Assembly: GCA_021299375.1 (NCBI GenBank)
Contig: JAJTGR010000065.1
Location: 1 to 63,984 of the forward strand
Reading direction: 5' to 3'
From: Gemmatimonadota bacterium
GTDB lineage: Bacteria > Gemmatimonadota > Gemmatimonadetes > Gemmatimonadales > Gemmatimonadaceae
Length of the DNA: 63,984 nt
The notes beneath the pieces are model-generated. The model saw nothing but the letters and a program-made list of their open reading frames with translations. It was not told the origin of the DNA and did no database searches. Position numbers and translations under genes: made by a program. This document shows, piece by piece, positions 27,651 to 38,130 of this stretch (its first letter is position 1; each line of letters opens with the position of its first letter).

Positions 27651-29096
27651 ATGACGTGGCGGCGCACGCCGCTCGTGCTGACCGCTTCGCTGGTCGCGGC
27701 GTTCGTCGCTGGGCTGCCCGCCGCCTGCGCCCGCAGGTCGCGGCCGACGCCACCCCCGCCGACGGCCTGGGTGTCGACGGCCGACCGCGCGCGCCTGCTC
27801 GATGCCCAGCCGGTGCATACCGACCCCGGTGCTCCCGCCGACGTCGTCATCGCCCTCGATACCACGGCCACGTTCCAGCCCATTGAAGGGTTCGGCGCCG
27901 CGCTCACCGACGCGTCGCGTCTCGTGCTCGATCGCCTGCCGCCCGCCGAACGCACGGCGCTGCTCCGCGATCTGTTCTCGCCCACGGACGGCATCGGGCT
28001 CAGCGTGCTGCGGGTACCGCTTGGGGCGTCGGACTTCTCGCCAATCCACGATAGCTACGACGACGTACCGCCCGGGGTGCATGACACGACCTTCCGGTGG
28101 TTCCGCTTCGACCGGGAGCGCGAGCGGGTGGCGATGCTGCACGCCATTCGGCGTGTGCAGCCCGCGCTGCAGCTCATCGGCGCTCCATGGAGCGCACCGG
28201 CGTGGATGAAGACGCCGGCCACGCTGATCGGAGGCACCCTGCGCGACGAAGCCATGCCATGGTACGCCGAGTATCTCGCGCGCGTCGTGGGTGCCTTCGA
28301 CTCGGCCGGTGTGCGCCTCGACTACGTGAGCGTGCAGAACGAGCCCCGCCATGCCCCCACCGACTATCCGGGCATGCGCCTCTCGGCGGCGCAGCGCGCC
28401 ACGCTGCTGGGCGCGCACGTCGGGCCGATGCTTGCGGAGCGGTACCCATACGTGCGTCTGCTGGAGTGGGACCACAACTGGGACGCGCCCGAGGAGCCAC
28501 TCGCCGTGTTGCAGGACAGCGCGGCGCGGCGCGCTGTGCACGGGGTGGCGTGGCACTGTTACGCCGGTGATGTCTCGGCGCAGTCGGTGGTACACGCGGC
28601 GCATCCAACCGTGGCCACCTGGTTCACCGAGTGCGCCGGCGGGGCCTGGGCACCTGATTTCGGCGACAACCTGCTGTGGAATGTGCGTACGCTGGTGATC
28701 GGCGCCACGCAGCACTGGGCGCGCGGGGTGCTGCTGTGGAACCTCGCCCTCGATGAGCGACACGGCCCGCACCGCGGGGGCTGCGCCGACTGTCGGGGCG
28801 TGGTGACCGTGGACGCGGCCATCGGCCGCGTGACGCGCAACGCGGAGTACTACGCGCTCGCCCACGCCAGTCGCTTCGTGCGGCGCGGTGCCGTGCGCAT
28901 TGGCAGTGCGGTGACGCGCGGCGACACGGACACCTTTGCGCAGGTGGCGTTCCGGCACGCAGATGGCGACGGTTCGCTGGTGGTGATCGCGGCGAATGCT
29001 GCGCCGGTCGCGCAGTGGGTGCGGATCGAGGGCGGTGTTCGTGCCATGCGACTGGAGATGCCGGCCCGCAGCGTGGTAACGGTCGAGCAGCGCTGA
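27651..29096 (+). CDS. GH30-family glycosidase (glucosylceramidase-like), exported
   Basis: A 481-residue glycoside hydrolase. The N-terminus has a hydrophobic export signal ending LPAACARR; a Cys there could be lipidated, but the lipobox is imperfect. The GH30 fold is shown by QPIEGFGAALTDASRLVLDRLP, LSVLRVPLGASDFS, APWSAPAWMKT, the acid/base Glu in YVSVQNEPRH and the nucleophile Glu in TWFTECAGG. A C-terminal beta domain ends with SVVTVEQR. Candidate substrates are beta-glucosides or beta-xylosides outside the cytoplasm. It starts 46 nt after the gamma-glutamyltransferase gene and may share its transcript. Confidence 0.92.
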   Translation: MTWRRTPLVLTASLVAAFVAGLPAACARRSRPTPPPPTAWVSTADRARLLDAQPVHTDPGAPADVVIALDTTATFQPIEGFGAALTDASRLVLDRLPPAERTALLRDLFSPTDGIGLSVLRVPLGASDFSPIHDSYDDVPPGVHDTTFRWFRFDRERERVAMLHAIRRVQPALQLIGAPWSAPAWMKTPATLIGGTLRDEAMPWYAEYLARVVGAFDSAGVRLDYVSVQNEPRHAPTDYPGMRLSAAQRATLLGAHVGPMLAERYPYVRLLEWDHNWDAPEEPLAVLQDSAARRAVHGVAWHCYAGDVSAQSVVHAAHPTVATWFTECAGGAWAPDFGDNLLWNVRTLVIGATQHWARGVLLWNLALDERHGPHRGGCADCRGVVTVDAAIGRVTRNAEYYALAHASRFVRRGAVRIGSAVTRGDTDTFAQVAFRHADGDGSLVVIAANAAPVAQWVRIEGGVRAMRLEMPARSVVTVEQR

Positions 29097-31611: not shown

Positions 31612-31976
31612 TCGGCAGACTCCGGCGGGAGCGGTACGAGCGTGACGTCGGCGTGGTGGAAGGTGCTGGTCCCGATGCGCGTGATGCGGAAGCGCCCGCC
31701 GCAGTGCGGATCGGGACAGGCGATCTCGGCGTCGGTGGTCATCCAGTCGTTGGGGTGCGTGGGACGCTGCTTGGCGGGGAGCAGGGGCAGCAACGCCGCC
31801 AGCGGATACAGCGGAAAGGTCTGCCCCGGCGGGAACTCGAGGTTCTCTCCGCGCAGGGTGAACGAGTCCCCCGCCTTGTGGTTGCAGACCATGGGTCGCT
31901 CCGTGGCGATCACTTCGACACGCAAATCATGGAGGACGAACGAGTCGTCGCGCACGGCCGGCGGCAGGGAGGGCAT
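31608..31976 (-). CDS. TIGR04076-family small protein
   Basis: A 122-residue protein of a family without known function. The pattern VEVIATERPMVCNHKAGDSFTLRGENLEFPPGQ matches the family start (V.V.....G.C..H..GD.F), followed by the middle segment FPLYPLAALLPLLPAKQR and CPDPHCGGRFRI. Cysteines near 31 and 90 might bind metal. It is translationally coupled to the aldo/keto reductase gene, so it may take part in the same reaction. A TATCGT box sits 6 nt upstream of its ATG. It is divergent from the antiporter gene. Confidence 0.8.
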   Translation of the reverse strand: MPSLPPAVRDDSFVLHDLRVEVIATERPMVCNHKAGDSFTLRGENLEFPPGQTFPLYPLAALLPLLPAKQRPTHPNDWMTTDAEIACPDPHCGGRFRITRIGTSTFHHADVTLVPLPPESAE

Positions 31977-31982
31977 GGCTCA

Positions 31983-31988
31983 ACGATA
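31983..31988 (-). promoter_or_regulatory. -10-like TATCGT box before the TIGR04076 gene
   Basis: TATCGT on the minus strand is followed by 6 nt (TGAGCC) and then the ATG at 31976. No ribosome binding site fits in between, suggesting a leaderless transcript. The same hexamer lies 5 nt before the DUF1289 gene. Confidence 0.35.
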
Positions 31989-32024
31989 GCCAAATCCCGC
32001 GCCGGGTACGACTATGTGGCGCCT

Positions 32025-33410
32025 ATGCCTCTTGGTCCCTCTCCTGAGCTGTCGTTGCCGCTTGCCTTCCGGGGCGGACTCGCGGGCGCCCTGGCGCCGT
32101 TCGGTGTCTTCCTCGGCGGGGTCGGCACTTTGGCCATGCTTGGTGCTCCCGACGAGAAAGGGTTCTGGCCCATACTGCTGGCCGCCCTGATCACCGGACT
32201 CCTGCTGACGCGCGATCGGGCACGCTACGCCGAGGCCATGCTCGATGGTATGGGCCAGCGCCTGGTCATGATCATGCTGAGCGCTTGGCTGTTTGCCGGC
32301 GTCCTGGGGGCGTTGCTGAGCGCCGGCGGGGTCGTGCAGGGGCTCGCCGGGGTGGCGTCGCTGCTCGGGCTTGGCGGCGGTGCCTACGTGGCGGTGGCCT
32401 TCGTCACGGCCGCGGTGGTGTCGACGGCGACCGGCACGAGTTTCGGGACGATCCTGCTGTGCGGGCCCATCCTGTATCCGGCCGGCGTGCACTCGCACCC
32501 GGCCGCGCTCATGGGCGCCATTCTCGCCGGGGCCACGGTCGGGGATTCCATCTCACCCGTGTCCGACACCACGATTGCGTCCAGCGGGACGCAGGGCGTG
32601 GACATTGGCGGCACGGTGCGCGCGCGGGGGCGATACGCGGTGCCGGCCGGCCTCGTGGCGTTGGTGGTCAGCACGTGGCTCGGAGGCCGTACGACGGGAC
32701 AGGGCACGGTGCCCATGCCCGGCGGCAGCGTGAGCCTCGCACCGCTCGCCATGCTGCTCTCGCCGATGCTCGCGATCGGCATGCTGCTGGCGCGGCGGCA
32801 TCTTATCGAGAGCCTGCTGGCGGGCATCACCAGCGCTGTCCTGATCGGCCTTGCCGTGGGCGCGCTGTCCCCGCCTGCGCTGCTGCATGTGGCGCCGGGC
32901 ACGTTCGGAGCCACCGGCGTCATCGTGGACGGAATGCAGCGCGCGGTGGGGGTGAGCGTGTTCACGATCCTGCTCATGGGGCTGGTGGGCACACTGCAGG
33001 CCACCGACGTGCTGCCGCGTCTGGTCGCGACCGTGCAGCGCCGGGCCCGCTCGCCCCGGGGCGCCGAATGGTGGATGGTGGGCGTGGTGTCGGCGGCGGT
33101 GCTGCTCACCACGCACTCGGTGGTGGCGATCCTCGCCGTGGGAGAGGTCGCGAAGCAGACGGGGGAACGTTTCGGCCTCGACGGCTATCGCCGCGCGAAC
33201 CTGCTGGACCTCACGGTGTGTACGTGGCCGTTCCTGCTGCCGTACTTCCTTCCCACCATCCTCGCCGCCGGCACCACGCGCAGCGAGGGGCCGGCGGCGA
33301 TGCCGGTACTCACGGCCGGGATGGTGGGGCTGTACAACACGTATGCGTGGGCGCTGCTGGCGATGATCGTGGTGGCGGTGGCGACGGGGTACGGACGCCG
33401 GGATGGCTGA
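32025..33410 (+). CDS. NhaC-family sodium/proton antiporter
   Basis: A 461-residue inner-membrane transporter with about eleven hydrophobic segments. Family features are GVGTLAML near the start, VVSTATGTSFGTILLCGPILYPAG, and ILAGATVGDSISPVSDTTIASSG, the strongly conserved Asp-Ser-x-Ser-Pro-x-Ser-Asp-Thr ion-binding motif of NhaC-type carriers. The C-terminal part has LLTTHSVVAILAVGEVAKQTGERFGLDGYRRANLLDL. It exchanges sodium (or malate-linked ions in some relatives) for protons. The ATG at 32025 is chosen, although a GTG 9 nt earlier is in frame. Confidence 0.92.
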   Translation: MPLGPSPELSLPLAFRGGLAGALAPFGVFLGGVGTLAMLGAPDEKGFWPILLAALITGLLLTRDRARYAEAMLDGMGQRLVMIMLSAWLFAGVLGALLSAGGVVQGLAGVASLLGLGGGAYVAVAFVTAAVVSTATGTSFGTILLCGPILYPAGVHSHPAALMGAILAGATVGDSISPVSDTTIASSGTQGVDIGGTVRARGRYAVPAGLVALVVSTWLGGRTTGQGTVPMPGGSVSLAPLAMLLSPMLAIGMLLARRHLIESLLAGITSAVLIGLAVGALSPPALLHVAPGTFGATGVIVDGMQRAVGVSVFTILLMGLVGTLQATDVLPRLVATVQRRARSPRGAEWWMVGVVSAAVLLTTHSVVAILAVGEVAKQTGERFGLDGYRRANLLDLTVCTWPFLLPYFLPTILAAGTTRSEGPAAMPVLTAGMVGLYNTYAWALLAMIVVAVATGYGRRDG

Positions 33411-33514: not shown

Positions 33515-34915
33515 TCAAGCGTCTTCCAGCTCGTCCGTATCCGCGAGTCCGTGTGCCAACGCCCGCTCGAGCCGCTGCAGGCGCTTGTCGAACTGGCGCG
33601 TGGCGTAGTTGATGAAGGGATCGGGCAAGAGGCCGAAGGGCGTGGCGTCAGCGGGATAGGCGTTGAAGGCCTCGCTGATCACCGTGACGGCCGGGTCGAG
33701 CAGCGCATTCATGGTTTCCGTGACGGCCTGCCATACCGGCTCACCGTGGTCGGCCACGAGGCGCGACAGCAGGAAAATGCCGTACGCGATGTGCCGCGAT
33801 TCATCCTGCTTGAGATGGCCGGCCATCTGCTGCATCCCCGGCATGATGCCACGTTCGCTGAGAATGCGGTGGAACGTGTGATAACCCGTCTCGGCGAGCA
33901 CCCCTTCGACGATCATGTTGTACGTCGCGGACGCGCGCGCTTGCGCCATGGGTGAGCGGTCGGCGCGAAGCCGCTGCATCGCCTCCGGGAGCGCCTCGAC
34001 GAAAATGTGACGGTACGATGCGGTATGGTAGCGCGACAAATCGTCGCCCCCCGCGCCCACGGCGTCGAGGAAGCGCCGCATCCCCTCGACGTGCTTCGCC
34101 TCCTCCCAGATGAACGACGTCAGGTACAGTTGCTCCTCGAGCCGGCCTTCCTGCGCCACCACATCGAGCAACGGCAGGATGTCGATCACCACGGCTTCCT
34201 CCCCCGCCTGGAAGAGCGAGGCCAGCCGCAACAGCAGATCGCGTTCATCGCCGGCCAGGGTGTCCCAGTCGCGGCGGTCCTGCGTGAAGTCGATATCGGC
34301 CGGATTCCAGATGCCCAACCGCTTGGCCTTGTCCCAGAGCCGCATGGGGACGCTGTCGAAGCGAAGGCCGGTGGGGCTCGTGCTCTGGAAGGCGAGGCGC
34401 GCGGGGATGGATGTCGGATGGGGCGACCCCGCGGCGCCCCGTGTGGACGCGACCGCCTCTGCAGGCTGCTCGGCAGGCCCCGTGGCCCCGGCCGCGGCGT
34501 CCTGCTCCGCCTGAACGAGCACCGTGTGTGCCACCTTCAACAACGCCGTCGCCGCCGATACCTGCGGCAGCAGCCCGGCCAGCGACCCCTTCAACAGGGC
34601 GAGCCTGCCGCGCATGATGGCCATGGTAGGCGCCATGCCGCCGTTCAGTACCTCCATCCAGTCGACGAGGGCGCCGGTGATGACGAAGCGAGCGGCGAGG
34701 CGATCGTCGAGGGTGGCGAGGCGTGCCGCCCGGCAGGTGCCACGGTCGAGGTCGAGGAATACGGCTGTGGCCTGGGGCAGCCCCTGTGCCGGGTCGGCCT
34801 GGGCCTCGAGCACGAGCCCGCCCTCCCAGTGCCGCGCGGCGTGCCGGTAGGCGGCGCTCTGATTGAGCGCGTGGCCGAGGGCCACGACGGAACGTTCGGA
34901 GAAGGGATGTGCCAT
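33515..34915 (-). CDS. SCP2 sterol-carrier domain fused to an R2-like ligand-binding oxidase
   Basis: A 466-residue two-domain protein. Residues about 15-130 (ALNQSAAYRHAARHWEGGL ... FVITGALVDWMEVLNGGM ... RGRLALLKGSLAGLLPQV) form an SCP2-type lipid-binding domain. A Pro/Ala-rich linker of about 45 residues follows. Residues 175-450 are an R2lox Mn/Fe oxidase. Ligand candidates are Glu239, Glu272 and His275 (WEEAKH), Glu337 (IVEGVL), Glu372 and His375 (DESRH). Val242 and Tyr332 sit where the characteristic Val-Tyr ether crosslink forms in this family. R2lox holds a long-chain fatty-acid-like ligand, so the SCP2 domain may deliver or shield it. The ATG at 34915 begins the SCP2 fold. Confidence 0.9.
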   Translation of the reverse strand: MAHPFSERSVVALGHALNQSAAYRHAARHWEGGLVLEAQADPAQGLPQATAVFLDLDRGTCRAARLATLDDRLAARFVITGALVDWMEVLNGGMAPTMAIMRGRLALLKGSLAGLLPQVSAATALLKVAHTVLVQAEQDAAAGATGPAEQPAEAVASTRGAAGSPHPTSIPARLAFQSTSPTGLRFDSVPMRLWDKAKRLGIWNPADIDFTQDRRDWDTLAGDERDLLLRLASLFQAGEEAVVIDILPLLDVVAQEGRLEEQLYLTSFIWEEAKHVEGMRRFLDAVGAGGDDLSRYHTASYRHIFVEALPEAMQRLRADRSPMAQARASATYNMIVEGVLAETGYHTFHRILSERGIMPGMQQMAGHLKQDESRHIAYGIFLLSRLVADHGEPVWQAVTETMNALLDPAVTVISEAFNAYPADATPFGLLPDPFINYATRQFDKRLQRLERALAHGLADTDELEDA

Positions 34916-35405: not shown

Positions 35406-36143
35406 ATGCGTCCCACCTTTGTCCTCATGCCCCATCGCCTGTTGGCCGTCGCCGGTCTGCTGGGCAGCATGGCCCTCGGTGCCTGCGCCGCCCGCGGCCC
35501 GCGTCCTCCTGCCGAGCTCCGCTTTCAGATGGGTGACGCGGCTGCCATTGCCCGCGCCCGGGCCGACAGCCTGCGCTACCCGTACACGAAGGCCGACATC
35601 GACTTCATGACGGGGATGATCCATCACCACGCCCAGGCCATCTACATCTCCCGCTGGGCCCCGACACATGGGGCCGATGCCGCGGTGCAGCGGCTCACGG
35701 CCCGCATCATCAATGCGCAGACCGACGAGATCGCGCTCATGCAGACGTGGCTCAAGGACCGCAACCAGCCCGTGCCGCAGGTGGATACGGCCGGCACGGT
35801 GACGATGCCCGGTGCGGCAGGGGGTGGCCACGACCTGCATGCCCATGCCGGGCATGACATGAGCGCCATGGGTGGCATGATGATGCCCGGCATGCTCAGT
35901 GATGCCCAGCTCAAGGAACTCGATGCGGCCCGCGGCGCCGACTTCGACCGCCTGTTCCTGACCTTCATGATCCTGCATCACCGTGGTGCCGTGACCATGG
36001 TCAAGCAACTGTTCGCCTCCGACGGCGCCGGTCAGGACGAGACGATCTTCAAGTTCGCCAACGACGTCGAAGTCGATCAGAGCACCGAGATCAAGCGCAT
36101 GTTCACCATGATGCTCGAGCGGGGTTGGATTCCGCCGCAGTAA
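35406..36143 (+). CDS. DUF305-family lipoprotein (CopM-like)
   Basis: A 245-residue exported protein. The signal ends in a lipobox, ALGAC, giving a lipid-anchored Cys at residue 27 (or 20 if the ATG at 35427 is used). The DUF305 fold is a ferritin-like helical bundle with two metal-binding signatures, both present: FMTGMIHHHAQAI and FMILHHRGAVTM. Between them is a His/Met-rich stretch (HDLHAHAGHDMSAMGGMMMPGM) that could bind copper or silver. Relatives such as CopM handle copper in the periplasm. It lies 31 nt before the LVIVD lipoprotein gene on the same strand. Confidence 0.9.
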   Translation: MRPTFVLMPHRLLAVAGLLGSMALGACAARGPRPPAELRFQMGDAAAIARARADSLRYPYTKADIDFMTGMIHHHAQAIYISRWAPTHGADAAVQRLTARIINAQTDEIALMQTWLKDRNQPVPQVDTAGTVTMPGAAGGGHDLHAHAGHDMSAMGGMMMPGMLSDAQLKELDAARGADFDRLFLTFMILHHRGAVTMVKQLFASDGAGQDETIFKFANDVEVDQSTEIKRMFTMMLERGWIPPQ

Positions 36144-36159
36144 TCGCCACCCCTCCCAC

Positions 36160-36165
36160 TACCTT
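36160..36165 (+). promoter_or_regulatory. -10-like TACCTT box before the LVIVD gene
   Basis: TACCTT lies 9 nt before the ATG at 36175, inside the 31-bp gap after the DUF305 gene. It matches the TAnnTT boxes seen at other starts, so the LVIVD gene may have its own promoter besides read-through. Confidence 0.3.
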
Positions 36166-36174
36166 CCCCCAGTC

Positions 36175-38130
36175 ATGCACCTCACACGCTCCCGTGTCGC
36201 CCTCGCGGGCGTCGCCCTCACGCTGGCCGCCTGCGCGCCATCCCGGAAGCCGGACCCGGCGCCATCCCCTGCGGCCGACCCGCGCAACAACCTCAAGGCC
36301 GGTCTCTTCGACGCCGGCGAATACATCTCCAACCTCAAGGTCGTCTCCAAGGCGGTGTCGCCGCCGGGCTTCCTCGGCATCACCAACTCCGACCTCGCCT
36401 TCACCGGCAATTACGTCATTCAGGGCAACTACAACGGCCCGGTGGTGTGGGACATCAGCAATCCGGCCAAGCCGGAGCTGGTCGTGGCCTACGAGTGCCC
36501 GGCGTCGCAGAACGACGTGTCGGTGTACAAGAACCTGATGTTCATGTCGGCCGAGGCGCAGAACGGCCGCGTGGACTGCAAGCCGGGCGGTGTGCGCGAG
36601 GCGGTGAGCCCGGAGCGCATGCGTGGCGTGCGGATTTTCGACATCAGCAACATCAAGGAGCCCAAGCTCGTCGCCAACGTGCAGACCTGCCGCGGGTCGC
36701 ACACGCACACGGTCCTCGAGGATCCGAAGGACCGCGCGAACGTGTACATCTACGTCTCGGGCTCCTCGGGTATTCGTCCGAAGACCGAACTGGCCGGCTG
36801 CGAGGGCGACCTCGCCTCCGACGATCCGAACTCCTCGCGGCTGCGCATCGAGATCATCAAGGTGCCGCTCGCGAATCCGTCGCAGGCCGCCGTGGTCGGA
36901 CGCGCCAACATCTTCGCGGGCCTCGGGCCGGCGCCGAGCCACGGCCTGTCCGACGCCGACAAGGCGGCTGCCGAACAGCAGCTGGCGACGGCCCGTCGCA
37001 CGGGTGCCTTCATTGCCCGGAACCCGCAGTCGGGGGCGGACATGGTGGTGCCCGGCCAGCTGGTGCGCCCCATGCTCGACAGCATCGCGCGCGCGCGGGG
37101 GGCGTCCACGCCGAACGCGGCCGACAGCGCGGCCGCCCGTCCGCTCATGCAGGCGGCCATGAACCGTATCTTCTCCGGTGCCGCCGGCGGCGGGGGCCGC
37201 GGCGGCGAGCGCTCGCAGTGCCACGATATCACGGTCTATCCGGCGCTCGGCCTGGCCGGCGGCGCCTGCGAGGGACATGGCCTGCTGCTCGACATCAGCA
37301 ACCCGGCGAACCCGGTGCGTCTCGATGCCGTGGCCGACAGCAACTTCGCCTACTGGCACTCGGCCACGTTCAACAACGACGGCACGCAGATCCTGTTCAG
37401 CGACGAGTGGGGCGGCGGTGGCGCGCCCAAGTGCCGTGCCGGTGACAAGCCGGAGTGGGGCGCCAACGCGATCTTCGAGATCGTGAACAGGAAGATGGTG
37501 TTCAAGAGCTACTACAAGATCCCCACCTACCAGTCGTCGAACGAAAACTGCGTGGCCCACAACGGCTCGCTCATCCCGATTCCGGGGCGAGACGTGATGG
37601 TGCAGGCGTGGTATCAGGGCGGCATCTCGGTGTTCGACTGGACCGACCCCGCCAACCCGAAGGAGATCGCGAGCTTCGACCGCGGTCCGATTGACGGGAC
37701 CCGCATGGTGTCGGGCGGCTCGTGGTCGGTGTACTGGTACAACGGCCAGATCGTGAGCTCCGAAATCGCCCGCGGTCTCGATGTGGCGCAGCTCGTGCCG
37801 AGCCCGTACATCACGCAGAACGAGATCGACGCCGCCAACACGGTGAAGTGGAGCGAGCTGAACGCGCAGGGGCAGCCGAAGATCTCGTGGCCGCCCAGCT
37901 TTGCGCTGGCCAAGGCCTACACCGACCAGCTCGAGCGCAAGGGGTGCGCGGCCTCAGCGGTGTCGGCGCTGCGCTCGCAGATCACGGCGGCCGAAAAGGC
38001 GAGCGGCGCGGCCCGCAACACGGCGCTGACGGCGGCCGTGACGGCGGCCGAAGGCGCGCGCGGCTGCGACGGCAAGAAGACGGACCTGCTCAAGAAGGCG
38101 CTGCAGGATCTGCAGGCGCCGGCGATGTAA
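36175..38130 (+). CDS. LVIVD-repeat lipoprotein, beta-propeller-like
   Basis: A 651-residue surface or periplasmic lipoprotein (lipobox LAAC, Cys at residue 20). Repeated strands such as PVVWDISNPAKPELVVAY, VRIFDISNIKEPKLVANV, LLLDISNPANPVRLDAVAD and SVFDWTDPANPKEIASF are LVIVD repeats, which fold into a beta-propeller resembling selenium-binding protein 56. Conserved cysteines (YECPASQNDV, DCKPGG, QTCRGSHTH, SQCHDITVYP, NENCVAHNG) and histidines suggest a metal site. The C-terminal 100 residues are helical. It follows the DUF305 gene and ends at a strong terminator, so the two form one unit, possibly in metal or thiol handling. Confidence 0.88.
   Translation: MHLTRSRVALAGVALTLAACAPSRKPDPAPSPAADPRNNLKAGLFDAGEYISNLKVVSKAVSPPGFLGITNSDLAFTGNYVIQGNYNGPVVWDISNPAKPELVVAYECPASQNDVSVYKNLMFMSAEAQNGRVDCKPGGVREAVSPERMRGVRIFDISNIKEPKLVANVQTCRGSHTHTVLEDPKDRANVYIYVSGSSGIRPKTELAGCEGDLASDDPNSSRLRIEIIKVPLANPSQAAVVGRANIFAGLGPAPSHGLSDADKAAAEQQLATARRTGAFIARNPQSGADMVVPGQLVRPMLDSIARARGASTPNAADSAAARPLMQAAMNRIFSGAAGGGGRGGERSQCHDITVYPALGLAGGACEGHGLLLDISNPANPVRLDAVADSNFAYWHSATFNNDGTQILFSDEWGGGGAPKCRAGDKPEWGANAIFEIVNRKMVFKSYYKIPTYQSSNENCVAHNGSLIPIPGRDVMVQAWYQGGISVFDWTDPANPKEIASFDRGPIDGTRMVSGGSWSVYWYNGQIVSSEIARGLDVAQLVPSPYITQNEIDAANTVKWSELNAQGQPKISWPPSFALAKAYTDQLERKGCAASAVSALRSQITAAEKASGAARNTALTAAVTAAEGARGCDGKKTDLLKKALQDLQAPAM

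What the first reader, a model, noticed from the sequence alone, without database searches (positions are those of the whole stretch)
33515..34915. SCP2 lipid-binding domain fused to an R2lox Mn/Fe oxidase
One intact gene joins an N-terminal SCP2-type sterol-carrier domain to a complete R2lox domain. Both the Glu/His metal ligands (Glu239, Glu272, His275, Glu337, Glu372, His375) and the Val242/Tyr332 crosslink pair are present. R2lox proteins are known with a bound long-chain fatty-acid-like ligand and an unknown substrate. A fused lipid-carrier domain suggests the substrate is a hydrophobic lipid handed over directly. I do not know of a characterised example of this fusion.
Basis: partly seen in the sequence, partly recalled or inferred. 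Interest (0 to 1): 0.72.

Follow-up and report, generated by a model that had tools for sequence, protein, structure and literature searches.

The report
Lipid-carrier domain fused to R2lox oxidase
A Gemmatimonadaceae bacterium makes one protein that joins a lipid-carrying domain to a metal-dependent, oxygen-using enzyme whose natural target is still debated; the same pairing recurs in three bacterial phyla and also as side-by-side genes, which points to an oily substrate and makes that idea testable.

Summary
Window 33515-34915, MINUS strand, is one intact 466-aa gene. Its N-terminal SCP2 domain (residues ~5-132; closest solved relative Thermus SCP2, TM 0.90, 45% identity) is joined by a disordered linker to a complete R2lox domain (178-463). 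All six metal ligands and the Val/Tyr cross-link pair are as stated.

The fusion is not an accident or an assembly error. I found 19 distinct fused loci in Gemmatimonadota (three families), Chloroflexota and Balneolota. All keep the eight active-site residues; both domains are under purifying selection while the linker is lax. A separate deep clade of Gemmatimonadota R2lox keeps SCP2 as its own gene directly upstream (2-5 bp in three cases), so the link exists as fusion and as operon. No SCP2 gene of this family was found beside 66 R2lox genes of other lineages.

Best reading: a tethered lipid carrier serving an Mn/Fe oxidase, working like UbiJ/UbiT or COQ9-COQ7. Lipid binding and hand-over are inferred; cavity-to-tunnel docking is unproven. 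One genome keeps a fusion-type SCP2 without R2lox, so SCP2 is not only an R2lox accessory. I found no published description. New variant of a known kind.

The parts
33515..34915 (-). Whole fusion gene, SCP2-linker-R2lox, 466 aa plus stop
   Evidence: Single open frame; full-length relatives in three phyla
34520..34903 (-). SCP2 domain, residues 5-132
   Evidence: phmmer to 1wfr/2cx7 E about 2e-25; PF02036 above gathering score; fold match 2cx7_B TM 0.90
34391..34483 (-). Linker, residues about 145-175, disordered and variable
   Evidence: pLDDT <50 at 149-167; dN/dS 0.29-1.13 where estimable and length variation among relatives
33527..34384 (-). R2lox domain, residues 178-463
   Evidence: NF006202 383.7 bits; 3ee4 Z 39.9
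33791..34201 (-). Span holding the active-site codons: E239, V242, E272, H275, Y332, E337, E372, H375
   Evidence: Residues read directly; the same eight in all 19 fused loci

Best explanation
The gene encodes an R2-like ligand-binding oxidase with its own tethered lipid carrier. SHOWN: two complete domains in one protein, a conserved active site, a conserved architecture in three phyla, purifying selection on both halves, and the same two genes side by side in a second R2lox clade. INFERRED: the SCP2 domain binds a long-chain, poorly soluble molecule (fatty acid, alkane or similar lipid) in its cavity and, on its flexible linker, presents it to the mouth of the hydrophobic R2lox channel or takes the product away. 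The Mn/Fe (or Fe/Fe) centre activates O2, forms the Val242-Tyr332 ether link in the scaffold, and oxidises the bound chain. Tethering raises the local concentration of a substrate that would otherwise be in membranes or micelles.
For: 19 fused loci in Gemmatimonadota, Chloroflexota and Balneolota. Eight active-site residues kept in all. dN/dS 0.09-0.21 for SCP2 and 0.02-0.16 for R2lox in nine pairs. Separate R2lox clade with SCP2 as the gene immediately upstream on the same strand in five members, stop-to-ATG 2-5 bp in three. Seven of nine fused genomes have no other PF02036 protein, whereas all ten genomes with unfused canonical R2lox have a separate SCP2 of this family. [quoted passage not shown] Precedent: UbiJ's SCP2 binds ubiquinone intermediates, and the SCP2 protein UbiT is fused to the hydroxylase UbiU in Zymomonas (PMC6747719); lipid-binding COQ9 docks on di-iron COQ7 (PMC9774615).
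Against: No measured lipid binding or activity. Relative placement of the domains is not fixed by prediction (pTM 0.78 and 0.67). Most R2lox genes, including 66 loci from other lineages, work without this SCP2 nearby. G219 keeps SCP2 without R2lox, and Thermus composti and Deinobacterium chartae have PF02036 proteins but no NF006202 match, so SCP2 has other uses. Neighbouring genes give no lipid pathway.
Confidence: 0.6

Rival explanations
1. The SCP2 domain is a docking, membrane-recruiting or stabilising module rather than a substrate shuttle: it brings R2lox to a membrane or a partner protein, and the substrate enters R2lox on its own.
For: UbiJ also organises a multi-enzyme complex (PMC6747719). 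The long last SCP2 helix (112-144) and the lax linker would suit a tethered docking module.
Against: Does not by itself explain why a lipid-binding fold, and not any docking domain, recurs with a fatty-acid-binding oxidase as fusion and as operon.
Confidence: 0.2
2. SCP2 acts on the other side of the reaction: it buffers or sequesters fatty acids or oxidised product (or protects lipids) rather than feeding the oxidase.
For: SCP2 domains bind lipids in general; direction of transfer cannot be read from sequence. A fusion-type SCP2 kept without R2lox fits a buffering role.
Against: Nothing specific; it shares the structural evidence of the main explanation.
Confidence: 0.12
3. The protein is specifically an alkane monooxygenase that uses SCP2 to bring in alkanes.
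For: Alkane degradation reported for GkR2loxI and a hydrocarbon-linked gene cluster there (PMC10867098).
Against: The reported activity is from crude lysate with only an 11-21% shift in remaining alkane for the E202A/H205A mutant. The window gene has no alcohol/aldehyde dehydrogenase or beta-oxidation cluster; its neighbours are an Na+/H+ antiporter, an aldo/keto reductase and DUF305/LVIVD genes.
Confidence: 0.15
4. Fortuitous gene joining without functional coupling, or an assembly artefact.
For: The fusion is patchy (8 of 30 genomes of the genus have this R2lox) and G219 shows that the halves can part.
Against: Kept in three phyla, purifying selection on both halves, and independent adjacency of the same two genes in a distant clade.
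Confidence: 0.04

Closest known systems
R2-like ligand-binding oxidase (R2lox; M. tuberculosis 3ee4/4ac8, GkR2loxI 4hr0)
   Same: Fold (Z 38-40), six metal ligands, Val/Tyr cross-link pair, constant offset of 170 to GkR2loxI numbering
   Different: Known R2lox structures are single-domain; here an SCP2 domain and linker precede the oxidase
Thermus SCP2 (2cx7, 1wfr/TT1886)
   Same: SCP2 fold, 45% identity, TM 0.90 over the domain
   Different: Stand-alone ~130-aa protein; here fused to an oxidase
UbiJ/UbiT (SCP2 accessory proteins of ubiquinone synthesis; one UbiT-UbiU gene fusion)
   Same: Works like: SCP2 lipid binder paired with hydroxylases on hydrophobic substrates, once as a fusion (PMC6747719)
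   Different: Partner enzymes are flavin or Fe-S hydroxylases, not R2lox; the substrate pathway is known there and not here; not claimed as the same family
COQ9-COQ7
   Same: Works like: a lipid-binding protein docked on a ferritin-like dimetal hydroxylase (PMC9774615)
   Different: COQ9 has a TetR-type fold and is a separate protein; COQ7 is a di-iron quinone hydroxylase
SCP2-enzyme fusions such as SCPx thiolase and peroxisomal multifunctional enzyme 2 (from general knowledge)
   Same: SCP2 attached to an enzyme of lipid metabolism
   Different: Beta-oxidation enzymes, SCP2 at the C-terminus, eukaryotic

Membership tests
R2lox | Sequence assigned to R2lox rather than ribonucleotide reductase R2 | tested here: met
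   NF006202 383.7 bits (cut-off 315); best RNR beta model 54.2 bits (cut-off 237)
R2lox | Four Glu and two His metal ligands | tested here: met
   E239, E272, H275, E337, E372, H375
R2lox | Val and Tyr of the ether cross-link present | tested here: met
   V242 and Y332, aligned with V72 and Y162 of GkR2loxI
R2lox | R2lox fold | tested here: met
   3ee4 Z 39.9, rmsd 1.5 A over 286 residues; RNR R2 entries at Z about 28 or less
R2lox | Mn/Fe cofactor, ether link formed, fatty-acid ligand bound | not testable with these tools
   Needs purified protein, metal analysis and mass spectrometry
SCP2 (PF02036) | Profile score above the curated cut-off | tested here: met
   22.3 bits vs 21.3, marginal; phmmer to solved SCP2 E about 2e-25
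SCP2 (PF02036) | SCP2 fold | tested here: met
   2cx7_B TM 0.90 (target), rmsd 1.2 A
SCP2 (PF02036) | Hydrophobic cavity that binds lipid | not testable with these tools
   Model coordinates not available; needs a binding assay
GkR2loxI-type alkane monooxygenase | Oxidises alkanes | not testable with these tools
   Needs an enzyme assay
GkR2loxI-type alkane monooxygenase | Gene cluster with alcohol and aldehyde dehydrogenases and beta-oxidation genes (supporting, not defining) | tested here: not met
   Nearest window neighbours are an Na+/H+ antiporter, aldo/keto reductase, DUF305 and LVIVD genes

The most novel reading that the evidence does not exclude
R2lox and this SCP2 family form a functional pair that evolution has built more than once: as a fusion in canonical R2lox of three phyla and as a tightly spaced operon in a deep, uncharacterised Gemmatimonadota R2lox clade. 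The pair would be a general lipid-delivery plus Mn/Fe-oxidation unit in which the SCP2 cargo is the native R2lox substrate.
Probability: 0.35. Interest if true: 0.72.

Novelty: new variant of a known kind. Interest (0 to 1): 0.55.

Why it matters
The native substrate of R2lox has long been open; the one report (alkanes, crude lysate) is recent and not decisive. A naturally fused lipid carrier gives a handle: purify the fusion or its SCP2 half, see which lipid comes with it, and test that lipid as substrate. The fused and operon forms also give two natural arrangements with which to test whether carrier and oxidase cooperate.

Tried and rejected
Two separate genes or a later start: rejected, the frame is open and relatives have an ATG at the same place. 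SCP2 as a chance Pfam hit: rejected. Ribonucleotide reductase subunit: rejected by profile and fold scores. Conserved pathway neighbours around the fusion: looked for, only close relatives share any. Single origin of all fusions: not settled (R2lox domain AU p 0.061; SCP2 domain AU p 0.004 without and 0.049 with the G219 copy). Fixed docking of the two domains: two AF2 models, pTM 0.78 and 0.67, no PAE or coordinates to hand, left open. Literature: no paper held joins 'R2-like ligand-binding oxidase' with 'sterol carrier protein', but most subscription papers are not held and a 2022 comparative R2lox paper could not be read.

Full report
OBSERVATION. The gene lies at 33515-34915 on the minus strand and encodes 466 aa in one open frame. 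I see no obvious Shine-Dalgarno sequence before ATG 34915. Pfam finds SCP2 at 18-107, only just above the gathering score, and the ribonucleotide-reductase small-chain superfamily at 201-449. NCBIfam assigns R2-like ligand-binding oxidase NF006202 with 383.7 bits. Sequence search of the PDB gives M. tuberculosis R2lox 3ee4 (E 1.3e-68, residues 178-461) and Thermus SCP2 1wfr/2cx7 (E about 2e-25, residues 5-132).

ACTIVE SITE. Each equals the GkR2loxI number plus 170 (residue list in PMC10867098; ligand roles in PMC6060897). In an alignment of about 100 R2lox domains all 19 fused ones read E-V-E-H-Y-E-E-H at these sites.

STRUCTURE. AlphaFold2 on a 59-sequence alignment gave mean pLDDT 91.4 and pTM 0.78, with residues 149-167 below 50. 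Foldseek lists R2lox entries first, then 2cx7_B with TM 0.90 to the target, rmsd 1.2 A, 45% identity. VIA-align gives 3ee4 Z 39.9, rmsd 1.5 A. A Chloroflexota homologue gave pTM 0.67 with its linker, 130-156, below 50. The two domains are well predicted; the linker and their relative placement are not.

SPREAD. In 395 Gemmatimonadota genomes, nine carry the fusion. A pattern-limited scan of one genome for each of 84,980 species added Gemmatimonadota, Chloroflexota (L038-L041) and Balneolota (L042-L044) fusions. After removing duplicates there are 19 fused loci, one of them (L037) cut by a contig end inside SCP2. Some MAG labels below phylum may be wrong (L039 is titled Thermoflexus but is nearly identical to Roseiflexaceae loci). 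In the window's genus 8 of 30 genomes have this R2lox family; five are seen fused directly and the other three have open frames of the same length as fused loci. It is an accessory gene.

SELECTION. In nine pairs of fused relatives dN/dS is 0.09-0.21 for SCP2 and 0.02-0.16 for R2lox; for the linker it is 0.29-1.13 where it can be estimated. The stretch between fixed anchor points varies from 25 to 45 residues. Both domains are kept; the linker behaves as a spacer.

OPERON FORM. A second R2lox clade in Gemmatimonadota (support 100/100 on a long branch) has the same eight active-site residues. In five of its members SCP2 is the gene immediately upstream on the same strand: from SCP2 stop to the likely R2lox ATG is 5, 3 and 2 bp in L120, L121 and L122, and roughly 57-75 and 131 bp in L119 and L123. 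In three more members, and in G159, SCP2 lies 1.4-13 kb away on the same strand; in the tenth genome, G014, it is on another contig. The canonical R2lox of G379 also has SCP2 next to it. By contrast none of 66 R2lox loci of other lineages had this SCP2 in the flanks held.

GENE CONTENT. Of nine fused genomes seven have no PF02036 hit other than the fused one; G063 and G083 have a second, different one. All ten genomes with an unfused canonical R2lox have a separate SCP2 of this family. These genomes are related to each other, so this is a pattern and not an independent test.

HISTORY. The R2lox tree needs several changes between fused and unfused states; one origin is not rejected (AU p 0.061). 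The SCP2 tree places the Gemmatimonadaceae fused domains among stand-alone SCP2s of another Gemmatimonadota family, apart from the Chloroflexota and Balneolota ones; one origin is borderline (AU p 0.049 with the G219 copy, 0.004 without). G219's SCP2 falls inside the fused clade, ends where the linker begins, and has no R2lox downstream or elsewhere in a 91%-complete genome: the oxidase half was probably lost and the carrier kept.

CONTEXT. In the window the gene stands alone between a convergent Na+/H+ antiporter (31653-33410 +) and divergently read genes led by DUF305 (35406-36143 +). Neighbours of fusions are shared only by near relatives. Stand-alone SCP2s of the family sit beside varied genes, repeatedly an LPG_synthase_TM gene in the window's own family. 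No pathway can be read from neighbours.

MECHANISM. [quoted passage not shown] UbiJ's SCP2 binds ubiquinone intermediates and organises the Ubi enzymes; UbiT is proposed to act alike and is fused to the hydroxylase UbiU in two Zymomonas genomes (PMC6747719). COQ9, a lipid-binding protein, docks on the di-iron hydroxylase COQ7 (PMC9774615). By these analogies the best reading is a tethered lipid carrier for an Mn/Fe oxidase. Architecture, conservation and selection are shown; lipid binding, delivery, direction of transfer and product are inferred. The lipid is open: alkanes are reported for GkR2loxI, but in crude lysate and with a small mutant effect (PMC10867098).

NOVELTY. Both domains are known, and SCP2-enzyme fusions are a known kind. 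I found no description of this pairing in the papers held, but the library lacks most subscription papers, and protein databases probably already list such sequences. I rate it a new variant of a known kind.

Noticed in passing
L015-L018 (G270, G282, G371, G157; one Gemmatimonadota genus): R2lox proteins with all six metal ligands but Met in place of the cross-link Val; V72A and V72L variants of GkR2loxI form no ether link (PMC6060897), so these may lack it.
   Followed up: partly
L130:1554-1976 (G219, same genus as the window): SCP2 gene nested in the fused clade but without an R2lox half; probable domain loss.
   Followed up: partly
L020, L021, L023-L028, L030: A deep clade of divergent Gemmatimonadota R2lox (29-37% to the window protein), below the cut-offs of the NCBIfam R2lox models for the three members tested but with all eight active-site residues.
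   Followed up: partly
L119, L124, L125, L127, L147, L148: An LPG_synthase_TM-type gene lies directly upstream of the stand-alone SCP2 gene in several genomes of the window's family.
   Followed up: no
window 35406-38130 +: DUF305/DUF4142 gene followed 31 bp later by an LVIVD-repeat protein on the same strand.
   Followed up: no
window 27651-29096 +: Glycosyl hydrolase family 30 gene.
   Followed up: no
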